A stretch of DNA of 64,000 nt, taken from contig JALLLS010000015.1 in NCBI GenBank assembly GCA_025094145.1, positions 310,001-374,000 on the forward strand. Reading direction: 5' to 3'. The stretch comes from Spinellus fusiger. Its lineage: Eukaryota; Mucoromycota; Mucoromycetes; Mucorales; Phycomycetaceae. The notes beneath the pieces are model-generated. The model did not search any database, was not told where the DNA came from, and worked only from the letters and a program-made list of their open reading frames with translations. The translations under genes and the position numbers were made by a program. Below, piece by piece: positions 2,189-57,896 of this stretch. The stretch's first letter is position 1; each line of letters begins with the position of its first letter.

Positions 2189-4566
2189 ATGGCAAAAGCA
2201 AAGAAAGCAACTATCAAATTCCAAAAGAATAAGCTCAAGCAGACAGTTGAGCATAGAAAGAAGAACAAGAAATTCAAGCAGCAAGTCATTCAGCGTCAGA
2301 AGCGTCGTGGTGGAAATTCAAAGGAGAACAAAGGTTAGAGAAGAAAGACCTCTTTCTTTTTCTTGTTTTTTTCCATGTTACTCACAGACAGCGGTGGTGG
2401 ATGAAGAGGGTGTAGAAGAAACACCAGCAGAAGAAACACCAGCAACAGAAGAGGAAACCAAGACGTTAGTGTGCTATGAACAGTGAATATCAACAGGAAA
2501 TGCTTATTTATGTCCGCTTAGTGAAACACCTGTCAATGTGGAAGACTATTTCTCGGGATTTATGCTTGAAGGAGAAGAAATACTAGACTTGGAGGAGGAT
2601 GAAGTAGGTAGTGGTGGAAGTGTAGGGTTAAAATGATGGGCTTTTATTCATACATGTGTTACTGGTGACTAGGAGAAGGATCTGGATGCACTGGATGTAT
2701 TTGATGCTGTTGTTGATCCTGATGCAGATATGCTGACAGAAGAAGAAGAAAGTGAAGAGGAAGAGGAAGAGAGCGAAGAAGAAGACATGGCCATGGAAGA
2801 AGACAATGCAAAGGTGGTGACAAGTGAAATGCTGGCAAAATGGTCAAAGGCGGTCAGTCAACAGTCACCCCAGGCCTTTAAGCAGATGTTGTTGGCCTTT
2901 AGAGCAGTAGTAAGAGCAGATGAAAACAGTGAAGAACAATACACCTATAGAGTGAACAGTAGCAAAGGTAAGAACGACCTCTTGACGCCATGTATGTCCT
3001 TATGAGCTGTTGGTGTAGTCTATACAAAACTAGTAAAGAAGACCCTTGCTGCTGGCTATCCCATCTTTAGCCAACACATTCTCATCAATAAGAAAGTAAA
3101 ACACCCTGCAAAGACAAGAGATTGGCCCAAGCTAAAAAATGTCATTCACCTCTTTCTTAATAATGCGGTTCGATTCCTGAGAGATCTGGATGAGGATACA
3201 ATGGTGAATCATGTTCTTACTCATCTGGATCCATGTGCTCCTTATTTTGGCTGCTTCCCCAAGACAGCCTACGAATACCTTAGAATCCTATTAGAGCGTT
3301 GGTCTGATGCTACTCTGCATCCGGAAACACGTACACGCTGCTACAACACCCTCCGCAACTTTGCAGCCACCGCCTTGGGTACTGAAAAACAGTCTTACTT
3401 GCCCTCTGCTCTCAAGGGTGTTTATCTGACATTTGCCAAACATGCCACCAAAGTCAATGAAACAACCCTCCCATTAATACAGCAAATGATTGAAGAAGGC
3501 TCTGATCTGTTTAATGTTGATCCTAGAATAAGTCTTGAGCATGCTGATGTTTATATTCGTCAACTTGCAACCCACCTTAAAAAGGCAAAAAAGGCACAGA
3601 CTGTAGAAAGCTTCAAGACCATTTATACATGGCAGTTTATTAACTGTTTGGATTTCTGGTCTTCTGTTATTGGCACAACATGTAATCCCGAGACAGGTGC
3701 CCAGTCTCCTATGCAGTCCATGGTACAGCCTCTTGTGGATATGTCGCTTCATACATTACGGTAAGAGAGTTATAGTTAAGATGAGAGACTAAGGAAGTCT
3801 GTCGACCAGTCTTAATCCTACAGCACAATTCCTTCCATTGCGCATTCATATTCTTCGATCTTTGATTGGTGTATGTGATGCCACTGGCTACTTTATTCCT
3901 CTTGCACCGTTGTTCTTTGAGATCTTTAACCATGAAATATTCAAAACACGGGCTGAGAATGAAGAGTTGGAAGCCTTTGATTGGGATTTACACTTGAAAA
4001 CTCCAAAGACATACATGAAATCTAAAGTATATCAAGTAAGCTTATCCTTTACCAATTTAATATCTATAATAGATACAATGTTGTTAATGACGGGTTCTAT
4101 TTAAAAATCAAAAGGATGCTGTATACAAAGTTCTTTATGATGGTCTTGTTGACTTTTTTGCTTGTTTTGGACTGTCTATTGCTTTCCCAGAACTTGCTAT
4201 TCCTGCCATTGACAAGGTAACCATGGCTATTAGTACTGTTATTATTGTTACTGTTACTCATGCACTATACTATATTATCAGCTGAAAGATCAACAAACAA
4301 AAATGAAAGGCACACGATTTACAAAATCCCTTAGAGTACTCATTGAAAAGGTAAATAGAACCAACACATAGCACATAGCATGACGTTTCTTTTTCTTTCT
4401 TCTTTTACTATAGCTTGAAACACACAAGAATTACATTGAACAGAAGCGTGCACCTATTGAGTATGGTCCTGGCAAATTAGAGCAGGCCCTTTCTTTCTTG
4501 AGAAACACTGCCTTTGAACAGTCACCCCTTGGTAACTTCTTAAGCAAGAGAAGCCAAAGTACATAA
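2189..4566 (+). CDS. NOC2: Nucleolar complex protein 2 (ribosome biogenesis)
   Basis: Noc2 acts in the nucleolus and nucleoplasm with Noc1/Noc3 to mature and export pre-60S ribosomal particles. Exons: 2189-2333, 2392-2464, 2522-2603, 2673-2967, 3019-3760, 3810-4035, 4115-4216, 4282-4350, 4414-4566. They give 628 codons in frame. The lysine-rich start (MAKAKKATIKFQKNK) fits nucleolar targeting and is followed by a long Glu-rich acidic segment. The conserved Noc2 core covers exons 5-9, with motifs such as LRDLDEDTMVNHVLTHLDP, GCFPKTAYEYLRILLERW and QFLPLRIHILRSLIGVCDA. The acceptor of exon 6 at 3809 was chosen because it preserves the core reading (LNPTAQFLPLR). A plausible alternative further downstream breaks frame. 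Codon use is unremarkable. Start choice: first ATG before the basic segment. Confidence 0.94.
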
Positions 4567-7500
4567 TCTCCACTATTGTCCTGCATAAAGATAAAATAAA
4601 TAAAAATAAAGTAATAAAAGCAAAACACCATCTACATTATCTACATTATTTACACTATTCTATCGTATATCTTTTTTTCTTCTTACTATTAGTCATAGTG
4701 TTGTGTATAAGCAATAGTATAGAATAGGACAGGGTAGGAGCAAATGATTTTATTTTAGAGATGAGAATGTATTTGATGGGTTCTTGATGAATAAAGATGA
4801 TTGTGTGTTAGGTGTATATTTTTATGTTTAATAAAAGACAGGGTGTATTCAGTGTTTATTCAACATAACAAATACAGCCATTATTATGATTAGTAGTGGT
4901 AGTGGTAGTGGTGGTAGTGGTGGCGGTGGTGGCAGTGGCAGTAGTAGAAATACAGTCTTCATTATCTCTTCTAGAAACATCGTGCTTGTACATGGCCTAC
5001 AGTAAGGTCACTAGCAATACACTCAACTCCATAATGCCTTGCACTAGCATTCAATGGGTGATAATGCAACACATTCTTATCTACTATGTTTCTATATACT
5101 CTTATGTCTGTCCCATCATAATACCCCCCGTCGATATATATTGATAATTGTGATTCATGTGTCTCCTTCTTACTATGGAATACGAAGCAATAACAAGTGT
5201 GCTACTGTTACCTTTATTTTAAGCTTTTGCTACGAATAGTTTAATGACTGTGAATGCAATTATGTAAGTGAGTAAGTTACACTACTACTTAACAATTTTC
5301 TCATACTTTATTTTCATAAAATAAAAGTGTGCTTTTCTTACATTCATTTACAAAAGAAATCAATACTGTTTCTATGGTTACAGACAATGAGTGTAGATTA
5401 GGCAACAATGTACTACTTGAGTGTCTCTCAAGTCACGAATGCTACTTTACACAGGTACCTACATACGCCTATCTACCTACTTACCTACCCACACACATAC
5501 AAATACACACACATATATTTATACATACATTTATACATACATACATTCATACATACATACACAAGTGTCAACCCAAAAAGAGTGTAGGCGTTATATAAAA
5601 ACACAAGGCATTTTGGTAAAACAAAGGACAAAAAAAGTAAAAATATATATGTCCGTAGCAAATAGCAAATAGCGAATAACAAATGATAAATGATAAATCT
5701 TCCCTTTGGCACCATTCATATACACTACTTCCAAAAATTAATGTCGCGTTTCATAAATATTTATAATACAATATATACGCAGATGTGACAAGTGAATGCG
5801 ACATTACTTTTCGGAAATGGTATATAGTCTGGCAGATGAAGAAATAATTATAAAAAAAAGACTTCAAAACCTACCCGCAGAATTCAGTTGTCGCCTCTAC
5901 GATAAGGCTGCAGTTAGTAGGGGCTTACTAGCTCTAGCTGTCAACTTTGTAACCCCTTGCAAGGACCAAGGAACGAATAAATGGACACAGATAATGCACA
6001 GATTTACACTCCAGTGTTTGTATCTGATTGTGTAATTTTCCATCTTTAAAATAATAATAATAGGATTATAAAGAACTGTGATAATAATAGTTTCGATACA
6101 AAAAAGAATCGTTAGTATTGTTTACTGCCATGAACTCCTTTGTTTTTGGCCAGCAATAAGATTAGCCATTAGAGAGTTGGTTTTCATACACATAAACACT
6201 CTACAACAGAACAAGACATTTCCTGTGTCAATACGAATAAAGAAAAGGCCGCTTTTCATTGAACTCCATCCGACTTTCCTACTCCTTTATTTGGCTTGAT
6301 GAAAGCCCGGCAAGAAAGATAGTGTCTATTCCTATACTAGTTCAAGAACGAAGCACTAAGAAGATTCAGTAATGATGTTTACCAACCAGAATTGTATCAG
6401 CAAAGCCCCATTACAGGAAGAGACGTCTATCTGATTTTACTTTCGAGCCTTTTGCATTATCATTCGACTGCATGTGTTACTACATCATACTGCACTGCGT
6501 AAAACTGAGTTGTACCTAGAAATATCAGTGTCGCATAATCTTCCTCTCCTAGATTTGCCCAACCAAAGATGAAATAACAATAGTGATAACAATAATGATA
6601 ACAATAGAAATAACAATAGAAATAACAATAGTAACAATAGTAACAATAGTAACAAAAATGAATAGAGAGAAAGAGAGAAAGACACCCATGATTGACGGAT
6701 GACTATTGAACATATTTCATAGTAAACAGTGTCTTTTTTCTTCTGTTTTTCTTCTACAACCTATCAGCCAATGCATCTCTGACTTCTCTCTCTCTCTCTT
6801 TTTTCTTTATGAATAAAAATGAAATAAATAAATAGAAGCAGATGTTTGCATTATTCAACTGTCTATGTCTTAATTCTATCTTATAATATAGAAGAAAAAG
6901 GCGTAAAATTGTAAGACTCTTAATAATAACAAAAGAAAAAGCAACCTTTGGCTGATGATTGGTAATGACACTCAGTAAATATATAGGTTTATGTCGAGAT
7001 TTGATATCCTCATTGTCACACCTTTACACTACGCAAGAAGTGTTCCCACCCCCTTTTTTTTGTATCTATATCTATATCTATATCTATATCTATATCTATA
7101 TCTATATATTATTATCTATATATTATTATTGTAGACATCTCAATTGAATACAAAAGACAACTTTCATGTTGATTATAATACCCAGTAGGGAAATAGAAGT
7201 GTAGGACACTTTTTGATTTGGATGGTAGAAACTAAAGGTGATTTGTGTCTGAAAGGTAGATAAAACAGAATAGTGAGAAATATAAACTATGGTACACATA
7301 ATATAGAACTGTCTGTAGTTGAATACATAGGCTATTGAAATTGCCATGAAAGGAAGGTCTTCCGGACCCTATAATAAAAAGTGTGCTCTTTTGCATGGAT
7401 CAACTTTAAGCTAGCCCAACTCCAGTGCTTCTGTATCTCTTACCTTTCTATAAGCAGACTATAGTCAGAGAGCACTCGTACTATTATAGTCTCTACATTA

Positions 7501-19342: not shown

Positions 19343-19695
19343 AATGATTAATATTAATATTATTACTACTCTTATTACTACTCTTATTATTACTTTTATT
19401 ACTACTTTTATTATTACTTTTATTACTACTTTTATTATTACTTTTATTACTACTTTTATTATTACTTTTATTACTACTTTTATTATTACTTTTATTACTA
19501 CTTTTATTATTACTTTTATTACTACTTTTATTATTACTTTTATTACTACTTTTATTATTACTTTTATTACTACTTTTATTATTACTTTTATTACTACTTT
19601 TATTATTACTTTTATTACTACTTTTATTATTATTACTCTTATTATTACTCTTATTATTACTCTTATTATTACTCTTATTATTACTTTTATTATTA
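19343..19695. repeat. 12/24-bp minisatellite
   Basis: Alternating 12-bp half-units, TTTTATTATTAC and TTTTATTACTAC, form a higher-order 24-bp period repeated about a dozen times. Variant CTTATTATTA copies lie at both ends. The strict alternation indicates amplification of a dimer. Long frames open through it on both strands (Ile/Thr/Phe or Asn/Lys/Ser repeats) but look purely compositional. Confidence 0.9.
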
Positions 19696-25582: not shown

Positions 25583-25945
25583 TATAATAAGTAGTAATGA
25601 GTGGATGATAAGTAATACTAAGTAGTAATAAGTAGTAATGAGTGGATGATAAGTAATACTAAGTAGTAATAAGTAGTAATGAGTGGATGATAAGTAATAC
25701 TAAGTAGTAATAAGTAGTAATGAGTGGATGATAAGTAATACTAAGTAGTAATAAGTAGTAATGAGTGGATGATAAGTAATACTAAGTAGTAATAAGTAGT
25801 AATGAGTGGATGATAAGTAATACCAAGTAGTAATAAGTAGTAATGAGTGGATGATAAGTAATACCAAGTAGTAATAAGTAGTAATAAGTGGTGATAAGTA
25901 ATACCAAGTAGTAATAAGTAGTAATAAGTGGTGATAAGTAAAACA
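25583..25945. repeat. 41-bp minisatellite
   Basis: The landmark GTGGATGATAAGTAATAC recurs at 25601, 25642, 25683 and 25724, a strict 41-bp period, and continues for several more copies. The last two or three copies are shortened and variant (GTGGTGATAAG, and ACC for ACT). Internally each unit contains smaller AAGTAGTAAT repeats. There is no palindromic unit and no unique spacer, so it is not a CRISPR-like array. Confidence 0.92.
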
Positions 25946-52363: not shown

Positions 52364-53232
52364 TAGTGTATACGTTCAGAAATATATATAAAAACAAAGG
52401 AAAATAGTCACTGAATCAAAATAAGAATACACTAATTAAAAATTAAGTGTGATATCCAAATAAATATAGAGAAGAAAAATATTTCAGAGACTATACGTTA
52501 ATCAGATAGTGGACCTGAAGCTTAACAATAGAAAAGAATGATGCATATCATGTTTATTGCAAACAATTGTTCGTTACTATATACACTTCTCTGAAAAAAC
52601 ACATTAATTTAAATAAATAAAAATAGGTAACTGTTAAAATACTAAGTGATAGGTATACACAATGGTAACAATAGAAATAATACAGCTCTATATAAAACTA
52701 GTTATTGTTTTTGATTTTGGTAGTCTTCCAACCATATACATATCAATGGAATACCTAAACATCATTTATTGACTCTATGTTTAAACATAGGGCTTGATAA
52801 GACTGAAGTTTCTAAAGGCTGATAAAGAAAAAGTAATAAGTCTGGTGGTGACCATGACTACTAAACACCTTGAAATGGTCTATTGTGTATATTATATGAG
52901 AACCGCTTCTGTGCTTGAACTAATACACTACGGTTAAGAAATAGACCATGATTGTTTGTTCAATAGTAGCTTTTATATACTTCTACTACTGTGACTCTAT
53001 CGATGTGATGAATTCATGCACATTTGTTACATCTGAGTTACCATGTGCATAATGAACATAATGACTGATCAGAAAGTAATGTGCTTATTAAAGTGCACTC
53101 TAAATTAGACACGTTCTTCTAATCTGATGCCAGTATCATTATAGATATATAAACAAAGAAATAGTGCTTAATATACATACAAAAACAGCATCTTTCCTAT
53201 GTGCCTATTAATGCCTAGTGATACATGTACTA

Positions 53233-54586
53233 CAGTGTCAGGCAAAAAAATAGTCAAAATTTTCGTTTTCCGACCTCTATTTTGGTCAAAAAATCTTTTT
53301 TTTTGCTTATTCTTCTTTTTCCGCTATATCATTTGATATGTCTGACACCACTGAACAAACCACCAAGCCTTTTGGAAAAAGAAAGAAGAATATCGACGAC
53401 TTTACTCGTAAACCCATTGTACATGAGGCCACTCAACATGGCACTAGCCAAGTGGAGATTGCAGCCATGTTTGGCATCAGTAATTCCACTGTCAGTCTTA
53501 TTGTGAAGAAGTACAGAGAAACTGGCTGTTTCAAAGCAGGGAAAAGCTCTGGGCGCAAGTTCATTCTGAAGGAGAGGGACGAGAGAGAAGTCTCTCGCGA
53601 GGTGGCAAGGGATTCATTTCAGAGCATGAAGGAGCTCCACCAAGGAATGGCCACCCAAGTGTCCATGAGGAGATTTCAGAAGATGATGAAGAAGATTGAC
53701 TTGTCTTCCTGCAGGGTGATCAGAAAGCCTGCTCTCACTGACAAGCACAAGAAGTTGAGGCTTGCTTGGGCCAAGGTCCACCTACACTGGGTAGAAGAAG
53801 ACTCGAAGGCGGTCATCTGGTCCGATGAGTCGAAGTTCCAGCTAATGAGCAACAACCACCGCAACAGGGCGGTACTTAGGAAGAAGGAGAGACTGCTCCC
53901 AAATAATCTGAAGCCAATGATGAAGTTTGGTGGTGGTGGGGTGATAGTGTGGGGTTCTCTTTTCTGGTGAAGGTGTTGGTAGACTTGCTGTGGTGGTGGG
54001 GTTCATCAATACTGCCAAATACACCAGTATTTTAGAAACGGCCTATTGCCCTGAACTGGCTTGTCTTTTGGCACTGAATCCAGTGGTATGCTATGTTCTT
54101 CAAGAAGACAATGTCAGTTGTCATACTAGTAAGGAGACTAGGAAATGGAAGGATGAGAGGGGCATAGTCACGATGGAGGGGTGGCCCTCTCAAAGCCCTG
54201 ACTTGAACCCAATTGAGCATCTTTGGTAGGAACTTGACAGAGCAGTTCGGAAGAGGATGACCCCAGAAAGAACCCTCTAGGATTTGAAGGCTCTCCTGGT
54301 CTAAGAATGGGACAAGATCCCTAAGGAGGTTACCAACAACTTCATCAATAGCATGTATCGGAGATGTAGGGCTGTCATTGAGGCCAAGGGTGGAAACACC
54401 AAATATTAAGGGTTTCCACACAATAAATTTTTATATAATATCCTGTTGACCTTCTTTATACTTCATCCAATTTTGAAGTCTCTACTGTGTGTTTAATGTG
54501 TGTTTTTATTACAAGGAATAAGTATTGCCCCAAAAAAGAATCCTATGGGAAAATGAAATAAATTATTATTTTTTTGCCTGACACTG
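53233..54586. mobile_element. Tc1/mariner-type transposon (element 2, inactive)
   Basis: About 1.35 kb flanked by TA target duplications (53231-53232, 54587-54588). Terminal inverted repeats share 20 bp beginning CAGTGTCAGGC followed by an A tract. It encodes one transposase on the plus strand. The HTH of that transposase is the closest relative of the tandem HTH array that starts 540 bp downstream of the element. Confidence 0.92.
53338..54409 (+). pseudogene. Transposase of element 2, DD35E spacing, frameshifted
   Basis: ATG at 53338 (MSDTTEQTTKPFGKRKKN) opens a frame with an HTH (QVEIAAMFGISNSTVSLIV), a second DNA-binding segment and AVIWSDESKFQL (first Asp). It then reaches GGGGVIVWGSLFW and hits a frameshift around 53966. 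The +1 frame continues with YVLQEDNVSCHTSKE (second Asp) and SQSPDLNPIEHLW (Glu), 35 residues apart. Three further in-frame stops follow (after EHLW, after PERTL and after LKALLV) before the natural-looking end KGGNTKY. Clearly inactive, but recent enough for all motifs to be readable. Confidence 0.88.
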
Positions 54587-54611
54587 TATGTATATCTTTC
54601 GAATCGCCACA

Positions 54612-55009
54612 GGATGACGGTTATCTTTTTAGTCCTGGTTTCCTTGCTGACTTTATGGCCTTTTTGGATGTCTATTCATAATTCTTATTTTGCCATCATT
54701 TCTCATTTTTCATTATTTTTCCCTCATTTGAGGTTTTGTATTTCTCTGTCCTTGTGTTTCCTTTCTCTTTGCATTATTTTTTCACTTTCGTATTTGAAGT
54801 GTTTATATGTTTATTCTTATTTATTTCACAAAAGTTCTCATAGGGTGGCTAATATGCCCAATGCGCGAATAGCACCTCACACCTGAAAAATAAAAATACT
54901 TTGAACTGTATGTATATCTTAATTGTTCAAAAGGATATCATAAGGTGACTATTAGGCTCAATGCACGAATAGCATTTACACCTAAGATAAAATAATATAC
55001 TCTGGACTG
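54612..55009 (+). repeat. Inverted-repeat arm, left of the HTH array (two tandem right ends)
   Basis: This segment is the inverse of 56978-57240. Both contain, in opposite orientation, GACGGTTATCTTTTT, CCTGGTTTCCTTGCTGAC, GGCCTTTTTGGATGTCTATT, TCATAAGGTGACTATTAGGC and the terminal TATACTCTGGACTG. Two right ends occur in tandem: one stops at 54908 (TTTGAACTG, then TA) and one at 55009 (CTCTGGACTG, then TA), 101 bp apart. This looks like rearranged or nested copies of one TIR transposon. Confidence 0.8.
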
Positions 55010-55123
55010 TATGTTATGTCTTAATATGAAAACAGTTCGGAATCTGAAATATCCAGGTTTGCTTTCTGTTTACTTTATTTACACCGGAGCGTAGCTATAT
55101 CAATTCTCTAACTTCATTACTCA

Positions 55124-56737
55124 ATGTCTATTTCATTCACTGAAGAAACAAATGACATTGAAAAAGCCTTCACGAATGAAGAAGCGAAAATGACTGAACA
55201 ACCAACCAACATAGAGAAAACGGACACCAATAAACAGAATTTCAGTGATGAAGATACCCATAAGACTCGTAAAAAAGGGAAGCGTGTTGATGAAGACATG
55301 CGCAAAACTATCGTACATGAACACAAGGTCAATGGACTCACTCAAGAAAAGATAGCTGCCATGGTGGGCACTAGCATAGCTACTGTTTCCAAAATATTGA
55401 ATGAACATACACTTAGTACTGGAATTCCCCATAAGACTCGTAAAAAAAGGAAACGTGTTGATGAAGACATGCGCAAAACTATTGTACATGAAAACAAGGT
55501 CAATGGACTCAGCCAAGTGAAGATAGCGGCCATGGTTGGCATTGACCAAGCGACTGTTAGTGAAATATTAAGGAAACATACACTTAGTACTGGAATCCCC
55601 CATAAGACTTGTAAAAAGGGAAAACGTGTTGATGAAGACATGCGCAAAACTATCGTACATGAACACAAGGTCAATGGACTCACTCAAGAAAAGATAGCTG
55701 CCATGGTGGGCACTAGCATAGCTACTGTTTCCAAAATATTGAATGAACATACACTTAGTACTGGAATCCCCCATAAGACTCGTAAAAAGGGGAAACGTGT
55801 TGATGAAGACATGCGCAAAACTATCGTACATGAACACATTAACAATGGACTCAGTCAAAGGAAGATAGCTGACATGATTGGTGTTAGTGATGTAACTGTT
55901 GGTACAATATTGAAGAAACATACACTTAGTACTGGAATCCCCCATAAGACTCGTAAAAAGGGAAAATGTGTTGATGAAGATATGCGCAATACTATTGTAC
56001 ATGAACACATTAACAATGGGCTCAGTCAAGAAAAGATAGCTGACATGATTGGTGTTAGTGATGTAACTGTTGGTACAATATTGAAGAAACATACACTTAG
56101 TACTGGAATCCCCCATAAGACTCGTAAAAAGGGAAAATGTGTTGATGAAGACATGTGCAATACTATCGTACATGAACACATTAACAATGGGCTCAGTCAA
56201 GAAAAGATAGCTGACATGTGGGCACTAGCCAAATGACTGTTAGTAAAATATGAAGAAACATACACTTAGTACTGGAATCCCCATAAGACTCGTAAAAAGG
56301 GAAAATGTGTTGATGAAGACATGTGCAATACTATCGTACATGAACACATTAACAATGGGCTCAGTCAAGAAAAGATAGCTGACATGGTGGGCACTAGCCA
56401 AATGACTGTTAGTAAAATATTGAAGAAACATACACTTAGTACTGGAATCCCCCATAAGACTCGTAAAAAGGGGAAACGTGTTGATGAAGACATGCGCAAC
56501 ACTATTGTACATGAGTACAAGGTCAATGGACTCACTCAAGAAAAGATAGCTGCCATGGTTGGCACTAGCATAGCTACTGTTTGCAATATCTTGAAGGCAT
56601 CCAGGAAGAATGAAAGTCTTGAACCTACAAAAGATATCGAAACCAAGTCCATAATTACCGATGAAGTTGAGCCATACTCACAAGTGGAATCACAGACCAC
56701 TACAGACAATGAAGAAATTAAGCAGGAGCATGATTAA
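55124..56737 (+). CDS. Tandem-HTH protein: eight 57-aa helix-turn-helix modules
   Basis: ATG at 55124 (MSISFTEETNDIEK) opens a frame with an acidic leader of about 45 residues, then eight tandem modules. Module starts lie at 55259, 55430, 55601, 55772, 55943, 56114, 56282 and 56453 (171-bp period). An acidic tail ends ...EEIKQEHD. Each module has a basic linker (KTRKKGKRVDEDM), a helix (RKTIVHEHKVNG) and an HTH (QEKIAAMVGTSIATVSKIL). The fold is that of Tc1-type transposase N-termini; the transposase at 53338 shows RKPIVHE and QVEIAAMFGISNSTVSLIV at the same spacing. No DDE domain is present. Module 6 carries three 1-bp deletions (about 56218, 56251, 56281) that put 63 nt out of frame and introduce a stop at 56234-56236. 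Their sum is 3, so the frame resumes. Function unknown; a DNA-binding array is inferred. Confidence 0.75.
55259..56620 (+). repeat. Eight-copy 171-bp coding tandem repeat
   Basis: The DNA underlying the HTH modules repeats every 171 bp (168 bp for copy 6). Copies 1 and 3 are almost identical over long stretches, as are copies 4 and 5, and copies 6 and 7 apart from single-base gaps. This implies recent duplications or gene conversion. Every boundary carries CTTAGTACTGGAAT followed by CCCCATAAGACT. It is a coding repeat, not satellite DNA: synonymous and non-synonymous changes are spread unevenly, with most amino-acid changes in the recognition helix. Confidence 0.92.
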
Positions 56738-56977
56738 TCCAGCTGTACAATTCACCTTTTACAGGCCAATGATGAGACTTGAACTTATCCTATAAATAAA
56801 TGTGTTTGATCTTATCTTTATTGGTGAATATGAATATTAAACTATATTCTACTGTCTACAATGAGGTCAGAGTAGTAGTTTATTATTAAGAATAGCCGTG
56901 GAAGTATGCTTTAAGATATAGAAGCAATAGTATACTAGCAAGTCATATAAAGTCCACCCATAAATACGGTAGTACTA

Positions 56978-57705
56978 CAGTCCAGAGTATATTATTTTAT
57001 TATTTTGGGTGTAAATGCTATTCGCACATTGAGCCTAATAGTCACCTTATGAGATCCTTTTGAATAATCAAGATATACATATAACCACTCTAAATACAAA
57101 AATGAGGAAGAAAAAAACAACCAAAAAAGAGTAGAAATGATGGTAAATAATTATGAATAGACATCCAAAAAGGCCATAATGTCAGCAAGGAAACCAGGAC
57201 ACCAAAAAAAAGATAACCGTCGTTCTATGGTGATCTGAAATTCAACGAGGGATACTTAGAGCAACTCGGACAATCCTGAGGATACAGCTACAGCAACTAC
57301 ACCAGCAGCTTCTGGCTTTGATAAACAGGTTATGAATGGGTGGTAGAAAAGTCTTTGCACTCTATGATAGTGTTGGTATTCCTAATCAACACACCCATCA
57401 GCAGCCTCAATGAGCAAACTACCAGATGATGGCTCTATTTAGGGTACATTATTGCTCTCTACTTTGGCTCAAGCATTGTCACACCCTGTCTACCCACCAT
57501 TGCCTTTGAGAATCTTGTGGAGTCAAGCCCAGACTAATGTCTATTCTTAACCTGGCATTTACTGTCATTTATTTCTCCACTTGAGTATTTAGAGTGTTTA
57601 TATGTATATCTTGATTATTCAAAAGGATCTCATAAGGTGACTATTAGGCTCAATGCGCGAGTAACATTTACACCCAAAATAAAAATAAAAGTATACTCTG
57701 GACTG
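56978..57705. mobile_element. Non-autonomous TIR element, about 728 bp
   Basis: Bounded by TA (56976-56977 and 57706-57707) and by inverted repeats of about 105 bp that start CAGTCCAGAGTATA. The subterminal parts share GCCTAATAGTCACCTTATGA and AAGATATACATATA, inverted at the right end. The interior has no transposase motif. Frames within it are broken but partly coding-like (YIIALYFGSSIVTPCLPTIA), so it may carry a captured host fragment. Its left half is the inverted counterpart of 54612-55009. Confidence 0.75.
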
Positions 57706-57896
57706 TATATACTTATTACCAGTAAATGTATTATTGTGTATGATGTACAATAAAAAGACAAATAGATACAACATTCATTCTAATGATACAGTGGGTTTTA
57801 TCTAGTCAAAGCACCCTCTTCTTATGTTTAGATTTATAAATAAGCCTAAATAATTGAATCTTGTCTTAGCAATTTGGTTTACATTCTTTCTGTTCT

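What the first reader, a model, noticed from the sequence alone, without database searches (positions are those of the whole stretch)
55124..56737. A protein built from eight transposase-type HTH modules
The frame encodes eight tandem 57-aa helix-turn-helix modules joined by identical basic linkers, with acidic ends and no DDE catalytic domain. Tc1/Tc3/Pax-like proteins normally have one or two such HTHs; I know of no described protein with eight. The modular layout is reminiscent of zinc-finger or TALE arrays and suggests a long, sequence-reading DNA-binding array. It could repress or mark transposon ends, or be a domesticated regulator.
Basis: partly seen in the sequence, partly recalled or inferred. 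Interest (0 to 1): 0.9.

Follow-up and report, generated by a model that had tools for sequence, protein, structure and literature searches.

The report
Tandem helix-turn-helix DNA-reading protein family
One probably fungal genome carries about fifty genes, one of them (damaged) in this window, whose proteins are strings of up to ten copies of a transposon's DNA-gripping domain, and the copies differ most at the few residues expected to read the DNA bases, so the family looks like a home-grown toolkit for recognising many DNA sequences.

Summary
The repeats are real: eight 57-codon HTH modules with acidic ends. They are not one open frame: module 6 is frame-broken and leaves two in-frame stops. 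The same genome holds 53 such loci by my merge. Of 42 arrays read, 37 keep all detected modules in one continuous frame, 1 to 10 modules; L014 is an unbroken 8-module protein. Frame-breaking indels are absent from the coding ends but frequent in the flanks, and the framework is under purifying selection (pN/pS 0.42). Seven older arrays keep a tail homologous to the second DNA-binding subdomain of the Tc1 transposase next door, so the arrays derive from a Tc1 DNA-binding half. Variation is concentrated in the recognition helix: positions aligned with the three base contacts of E. coli CRP are the most variable of 8436 triples. Best reading: modular DNA-reading proteins diversified for specificity, working like KRAB zinc fingers or TALEs, perhaps aimed at repeats or transposons. 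Targets, expression and structure are untested; positive selection is suggested, not proven.

The parts
55124..55258 (+). acidic N-terminal segment (45 aa, net charge -8), the same length in all 15 young-family loci aligned
55259..55429 (+). HTH module 1 (recognition residues 40,41,44,45 = I,A,S,K)
55430..55600 (+). HTH module 2 (Q,A,S,E)
55601..55771 (+). HTH module 3 (I,A,S,K)
55772..55942 (+). HTH module 4 (D,V,G,T)
55943..56113 (+). HTH module 5 (D,V,G,T)
56114..56281 (+). module 6, 168 bp, frame-broken by single-base deletions; otherwise identical to module 7
56282..56452 (+). HTH module 7 (Q,M,S,K)
56453..56623 (+). HTH module 8, last module (I,A,C,N), running into the C-terminal segment
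56624..56737 (+). acidic C-terminal tail and stop (net charge -9 over the 38 aa scored)
54909..55011 (.). fragment of a 732-bp Tc1-type MITE just upstream; in eight copies on contig C110 a MITE ends at the matching position (within 2 bases), so the insertion is probably ancestral
54597..54910 (.). abundant repeat related to that MITE (40 copies scored of 832 candidates genome-wide)
56976..57707 (.). full 732-bp MITE with about 123-bp terminal inverted repeats (93%) and TA at its ends, downstream of the array
53231..54588 (+). Tc1-like element (41-nt inverted repeats; transposase frame 53254-53970), the family whose HTH1 and second DNA-binding subdomain match the arrays

Best explanation
One (frame-broken) member of a large family of modular DNA-reading proteins. 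Origin (shown by homology): the DNA-binding half of a Tc1 transposase without its catalytic half, the first HTH (PAI-like) tandemly amplified; seven older members keep the second subdomain (RED-like) at the C-terminus, younger ones have an acidic tail. Mechanism (inferred): each module sets its recognition helix in the major groove with a conserved scaffold and reads a short subsite with residues 40, 41 and 45 (44 probably helps); basic linkers of about 19 residues carry the chain to the next subsite, so a 4-10 module protein would read a long composite site; the acidic ends probably contact partners. Specificity changes by gain, loss and exchange of modules and by substitutions at the contact residues, as in zinc-finger clusters. 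The most likely role, and the least certain step, is recognition of repeated DNA or transposons so that they are silenced or managed.
For: 53 loci; 37 of 42 arrays read keep all detected modules in one continuous frame, 1-10 modules. No frame-breaking indels in the coding ends against 5.4 and 10.3 per kb of pairwise-aligned flank. Framework pN/pS 0.42 (bootstrap 0.27-0.62); pN at positions 40, 41, 44, 45 is 2.1 times framework pS (1.6-3.3). The triple aligned with the CRP base contacts (Arg180, Glu181, Arg185; PMC12531629 passage; register) is the most variable triple of 8436 in 72 strictly young modules and in all 172 distinct sequences, and ranks 2, 94, 15 and 62 of 8436 in four other sets. 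Within single frames those four positions exceed the rest in 32 of 32 tested, p<0.05 in 28; among the 19 frames labelled old, 15. 116 distinct four-residue combinations in 172 distinct modules, against a median of 45 (maximum 94 in 2000 draws) for random core quadruplets. R, K or N at position 45 in 134 of 172. The tail profile hits the neighbouring Tc1 transposase at 6e-11. Clustering on contig C110, 12 of 53 loci.
Against: Formal positive selection is weak: N/S at the contact codons is 1.43, 1.53, 4.31, 1.30 and 0.77 in five sets; per-site tests reach only p about 0.03 at positions 40 and 45 of the young set and fail at 41 and 44, while linker positions 4 and 9 score lower p (0.0013, 0.013); synonymous counts are also raised at the contact codons; by amino-acid-changing rate the contact triple ranks 1, 5, 76 and 4 but only 610 of 9139 in L033+L038. 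So relaxed constraint, hypermutation or exchange of short tracts could contribute. No relative outside this genome was found, though those searches had little reach. The window copy itself is frame-broken. Nothing names the targets.
Confidence: 0.62

Rival explanations
1. Non-specific architectural DNA binder: the arrays coat or compact DNA (chromatin or centromere protein), the basic HTHs grip the backbone, and the base-facing residues drift because nothing selects them.
For: N/S at contact codons is near 1 in some sets and 0.77 in L033+L038; the seven window modules scored are basic; the CENP-B HTH is a weak relative (1bw6, E=0.0098).
Against: Contact positions stay rich in hydrogen-bonding residues (R/K/N 134 of 172 at 45; polar or charged 135 of 172 at 40); N/S is above 1 in four of five sets, which overlap in part.
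Confidence: 0.18
2. Selfish accessory: the array gene travels with flanking MITEs and binds their ends to promote or protect their transposition.
For: Inverted MITE copies flank L019, L024 and, in part, the window copy; copies are dispersed among Tc1 remnants.
Against: No array-flanking inverted repeat in 23 of 39 loci tested (window included; L028 and L031 not tested); no MITE match in the fetched flanks of several arrays, e.g. L025, L033, L038, L040, L042; C110 copies share flanks of over 1 kb including decayed Tc1 pieces, which looks like segmental duplication.
Confidence: 0.12
3. Neutral satellite-like amplification: a 171-bp repeat that happens to be open.
For: Tandem 171-bp units and a frame-broken copy here; 5 of 42 arrays are frame-split.
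Against: 37 of 42 keep their detected modules in one frame; zero frame-breaking indels in the coding ends; framework pN/pS 0.42; variation follows protein function.
Confidence: 0.04
4. Competitive inhibitor of resident Tc1 transposases: arrays occupy Tc1 terminal repeats without cutting.
For: Modules and older tails are homologous to this Tc1 family. Fifteen of 21 sampled Tc1-type HTHs, of other families, have R, K, N, I or S at position 45, residue types that arrays also use.
Against: The six HTH1s of the closest Tc1 family have Leu at 45, seen in 2 of 172 array modules; none of the contact combinations of the 21 sampled HTHs occurs among 180 array modules. The sample is small and the arrays carry 116 combinations.
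Confidence: 0.1

Closest known systems
Tc1/mariner (Tc1-like) transposases
   Same: HTH1 matches the array-module profile (E to 5e-17) and the second subdomain matches the tails of seven older arrays (6e-11).
   Different: No DDE domain found in arrays; HTH1 is repeated up to ten times; no TIR-bounded autonomous element.
Pipsqueak (Psq) of Drosophila, pogo-transposase-derived
   Same: A protein with several HTHs of transposase origin: four HTH domains (PMC10379775 passage); pogo origin of the HTH-Psq family (PMC10027918 passage).
   Different: Four rather than up to ten modules; has a BTB domain; the HTH_psq profile has no match in this genome. No family-wide hypervariable contact residues known to me (recalled).
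KRAB/C2H2 zinc-finger clusters and PRDM9
   Same: Clustered, duplicating genes, variable module number, conserved linkers, base-contact residues the most variable (comparison recalled).
   Different: Unrelated fold; no zinc finger or KRAB among the Pfam families shown.
TAL effectors
   Same: Conserved repeats with variable DNA-reading positions (repeat-variable diresidues; abstract of PMC6650089 in the listing).
   Different: Different fold, bacterial, one base per repeat (recalled); here HTHs that should each read several bases.
TnsD of Tn7-like transposons
   Same: Long region folding into multiple HTHs (PMC10293859 passage). The Pfam TnsD model passes its cut-off of 32.4 bits in two arrays (L028 46.9, L040 43.7) but not in the window ORF (29.7), probably through the repeated HTHs.
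   Different: Bacterial, linked to a transposon, not a near-identical tandem array; no TniQ core among the families shown.
CENP-B and fission-yeast Cbp1 family
   Same: Domesticated pogo-type transposases with N-terminal tandem HTH domains (PMC10085805 passages).
   Different: Keep a (partly degenerate) DDE domain; no long HTH array.

Membership tests
Tc1-like transposase | N-terminal HTH1 of Tc1 type | tested here: met
   Homology of modules to the HTH1 of six Tc1 transposases; HTH_SB in 18 of 32 modules at E<=0.01, single genome matches below the HTH_SB cut-off
Tc1-like transposase | second DNA-binding subdomain after HTH1 | tested here: inconclusive
   Met for seven older arrays by an in-house tail profile (6e-11 to the window Tc1), not seen by Pfam in those tails; young arrays have an acidic tail instead
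Tc1-like transposase | DDE/D catalytic domain | tested here: not met
   Not among the families shown for the window array and six others (best 25 of up to 37); none of the listed DDE_3 places (capped list) lies inside an array frame read
Pipsqueak (HTH_psq) family | match to the psq HTH profile | tested here: not met
   PF05225: 0 matches at E<=0.001 in this genome, 12 candidates scored
Pipsqueak (HTH_psq) family | several tandem transposase-type HTHs in one protein | tested here: met
   1-10 modules per frame
C2H2 zinc-finger arrays | C2H2 zinc fingers | tested here: not met
   None among the families shown (best 25 per protein)
Modular DNA-reading array (works like ZNF/TALE) | hypervariability focused on base-contacting positions of otherwise conserved repeats | tested here: met
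   rate-based ranks (extreme in four of five sets)
Modular DNA-reading array (works like ZNF/TALE) | sequence-specific DNA binding predictable from the repeat residues | not testable with these tools
   needs SELEX/DAP-seq
MITE-borne or TIR-bounded mobile element | array bounded by its own TIRs in all copies | tested here: not met
   No array-flanking inverted repeats in 23 of 39 loci tested

The most novel reading that the evidence does not exclude
A natural class of reprogrammable DNA-reading arrays built on HTHs, besides C2H2 zinc fingers and TALEs: about fifty paralogous genes in one fungus, diversifying at a small set of code residues (40, 41, 44, 45 of a 57-residue module) and shuffling modules in a KRAB-zinc-finger-like race with repeats or transposons; the HTH code could be learned and reused for design.
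Probability: 0.35. Interest if true: 0.95.

Novelty: new variant of a known kind. Interest (0 to 1): 0.8.

Why it matters
If the arrays read DNA as inferred, an ordinary transposase HTH has been turned into a modular, rapidly re-targeted DNA-recognition system in a eukaryote, probably a fungus. That would be an independent analogue of KRAB zinc fingers, a test case for how hosts keep pace with transposons, and a new scaffold for DNA-binding design with a compact module and identifiable code positions. It also gives an evolutionary series from Tc1 transposase, through arrays that keep the second subdomain, to pure arrays with acidic tails.

Tried and rejected
TIR-element idea: the inverted repeats around the window copy first looked like a 2.6-kb element. 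They belong to an abundant 732-bp MITE family and its relatives, and 23 of 39 loci tested have no array-flanking inverted repeats (L028 and L031 not tested), so I dropped the idea that the array is the cargo of one element.

Neutral satellite: rejected.

Search for relatives: protein search with L014 and with alignment A1 gave nothing (7999 candidates scored each); viral contigs 41 and prokaryote genomes 312 pattern matches, none confirmed. As a control the window's transketolase exon found best hits mostly at 70-81% identity, and the best named fungi at 57-59% (best 120 of 6635 listed; only proteins of 0.55-1.75 times the exon's length are candidates), so the collection seems to lack close relatives and absence elsewhere cannot be claimed. 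Host lineage not determined; 'early-diverging fungus, perhaps Mucoromycota' is my guess from gene content. Pfam on seven array tails found nothing better than E 0.04, although the in-house tail profile did find the Tc1 transposase.

Literature: eight searches aimed at such arrays listed no paper that, by its title or the start of its abstract, describes them; two more were for Pipsqueak and CRP. PMC open-licence papers only.

Per-site positive selection: not established. Positions 40, 41, 44, 45 were first picked from the young set, so tests on young frames are circular; I re-tested in other subfamilies and with the CRP contact definition. The sets overlap: 19 of the 91 'young' modules come from loci of the other sets, 9 of 75; without them the triple still ranks first. 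L045 (near-duplicate of L044) was labelled 'young' by a slip; L045 and L048 (near-duplicates) were dropped, in the young set and. Modules with gaps against the profile were left out (180 ungapped kept). One search saw only frames of 60 residues or more.

Full report
Observation. TRF reports a 171-bp tandem repeat at 55257-56569, 7.7 copies, 89% matches. Translation gives an acidic 45-residue N-terminus, eight HTH modules of 57 residues and an acidic tail, but with two stops in module 6; the ORFs are 55124-56236 (370 aa) and, from its first ATG, 56321-56737 (138 aa). Module 6 is 168 bp and aligns to module 7 without a substitution, differing only by single-base gaps. Indels only, in an exactly duplicated stretch, is what an imperfect long-read consensus could give; that is an inference I could not test.

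A gene family. The window's genome (38.1 Mb, 197 contigs) has 118 matches to the open part. Merging rows with E up to 3e-25 by hand gives 53 loci, the window included, on 27 contigs. Twelve lie on the 1.17-Mb contig C110 (1.6 expected, binomial P 6e-8) and five on C137 (0.4 expected, P 5e-5). I fetched 40 stretches; with the window they hold 42 of the 53 arrays, since L028 has two. Thirty-seven keep all detected modules in one continuous frame and five are split (window, L010, L019, L021, L039). Modules per continuous frame run from 1 to 10: 31 of 37 have three or more and nine have six or more. L014 is an unbroken 8-module protein of 537 residues from its Met; L033 has ten modules. Caveats: L017, L025 and L027 lack a Met upstream of module 1 in the same frame, L031 starts at a contig edge, L024 has GTG for the ATG, L013 stops just after module 4 and L020 lacks the usual tail, and the matches at the places of L013 and L037 cross a stop. 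So not every continuous frame is certainly a gene.

Coding constraint. Pairwise alignment of 15 N-terminal and 12 (of 15) C-terminal coding segments of the young subfamily shows no frame-breaking indel, against 5.4 per kb upstream and 10.3 per kb downstream (pairs are not independent). Between modules that differ by at most 10%, the framework has pN/pS 0.42 (bootstrap over loci 0.27-0.62; 75 modules, 24 loci, 91 pairs).

Variation sits on the recognition helix. Among 91 distinct young modules the most variable core positions (10-47) are 41 (3.13 bits), 40 (2.81), 45 (2.64), 30 (2.10) and 44 (1.98); most of the framework is far lower. The linker after position 48 also varies, in part because last modules end differently. 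A profile of 32 modules aligns over profile 28-49 to E. coli CRP (1i5z_A, chain 168-189), and a CRP peptide fixes T168 to Q193, so 40, 41 and 45 fall on Arg180, Glu181 and Arg185, listed as the specific base contacts of CRP (PMC12531629, passage). Of the listed backbone contacts inside the alignment (Arg169, Gln170, Ser179, Thr182, Lys188; Lys166 and His199 fall outside), the matching positions 29 and 42 are conserved, 39 is intermediate, and 30 and 48 vary. With this outside definition the base-contact triple is the most variable of 8436 triples in 72 strictly young modules and in all 172 distinct sequences, and ranks 2, 94, 15 and 62 of 8436 in four other sets, of which the first overlaps the young set most. 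Within single genes, positions 40, 41, 44 and 45 differ more between modules than the rest in 32 of 32 frames, p below 0.05 in 28 (misses L025, one L028 frame, L037, L041); of the 19 frames labelled old, 15. There are 116 distinct combinations at these four positions among 172 distinct modules, against a median of 45 for random core quadruplets.

How strong is selection? For close pairs, pN at the four positions is 0.243 against framework pS 0.113 (ratio 2.1, bootstrap 1.6-3.3). Tree-based counts give N/S at 40, 41 and 45 of 1.43 (young), 1.53, 4.31, 1.30 (ten old loci) and 0.77 (L033+L038). Per-site P is about 0.03 at 40 and 45, not significant at 41 and 44, and lower at linker positions 4 and 9, where Arg to Cys/His dominates at 4; synonymous counts are raised at the contact codons; by N rate the triple ranks 1, 5, 76, 4 and 610 of 9139 in the five sets. 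So contact residues change far faster than the scaffold in most sets, which is compatible with diversifying selection but does not prove it. The residues kept there are mostly of base-reading type (R/K/N at 45 in 134 of 172; polar or charged at 40 in 135 of 172).

Origin. The Tc1-like element beside the array (53231-54588) has an HTH1 that matches the module profile (2.7e-15; sisters to 5e-17). A profile built only from the tails of seven older arrays finds that transposase's second subdomain (6e-11, in a small set of window and locus ORFs). The arrays therefore derive from the DNA-binding half of such a transposase. The six HTH1s of that family have Leu at 45, found in 2 of 172 array modules; 15 HTHs of other Tc1 families have R, K, N, I or S there; none of the 21 combinations occurs in the arrays.

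Turnover. Several copies on C110 share flanks of over 1 kb, and L009 sits next to what I recognise as a ribosomal protein L10 gene. Array length differs among close copies. For 126 of 176 modules the nearest relative lies in another locus, and 24 of 37 last modules pair with a last module of another locus, so modules descend by position and are also exchanged. A 732-bp Tc1-type MITE lies beside many young copies, but 23 of 39 loci tested have no array-flanking inverted repeats.

Mechanism and comparison. I infer a chain of three-helix HTHs whose conserved scaffold and basic linkers place variable recognition helices in successive major grooves, reading a long composite site. It works like zinc-finger or TALE arrays but is a member of neither. 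It resembles Pipsqueak (four HTHs; PMC10379775 passage) and TnsD (PMC10293859 passage) in architecture, has no HTH_psq match, and differs by module number, gene number and focused variability. Eight literature searches listed nothing that describes it.

Limits. No structure model, no transcripts, no relatives (the protein collection appears to lack close relatives), no named host.

Noticed in passing
L019, L024, L037: Arrays flanked by long perfect inverted repeats (731, 727 and 1551 bp, 100% identical). The capped DDE_3 list also shows about a dozen pairs of equal-scoring transposase places in opposite orientation 2-17 kb apart on one contig. Either this genome is rich in recent palindromes or the assembly makes them.
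   Followed up: partly
L028:1985-3013 (-) and 3206-4819 (+): Two arrays (4 and 7 modules) lie head to head and begin with the same translated leader, as if the promoter and 5' end were duplicated as a palindrome.
   Followed up: no
module positions 4 and 9 (linker): At position 4, R51, C20 and H9 of 91 distinct young modules; these look like CpG transitions and hint at cytosine methylation of the arrays.
   Followed up: no
window 56114-56460: Modules 6 and 7 are identical except for single-base deletions in module 6; may be a consensus error in an exact duplication rather than decay.
   Followed up: partly
window 56976-57707 and 54597-54910: Abundant Tc1-type MITE family; 40 of 832 candidates scored, mostly 89-93% identical over about 313 bp.
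   Followed up: partly
L049, L051-L054, L056-L058: A second Tc1-like family with identical or near-identical HTH helices at eight sampled sites (QEISDDLDIPVSTVG), perhaps recently active.
   Followed up: no
window 19348-19695 and 25585-25941: Long minisatellites (12/24-bp unit; 41-bp unit, 8.8 copies, 99%).
   Followed up: no
contig C110 of G000: 12 of 53 array loci on one 1.17-Mb contig, spaced mostly by tens of kb, while none of the 40 best MITE matches is on it (capped list; diverged MITE copies do flank C110 arrays).
   Followed up: partly
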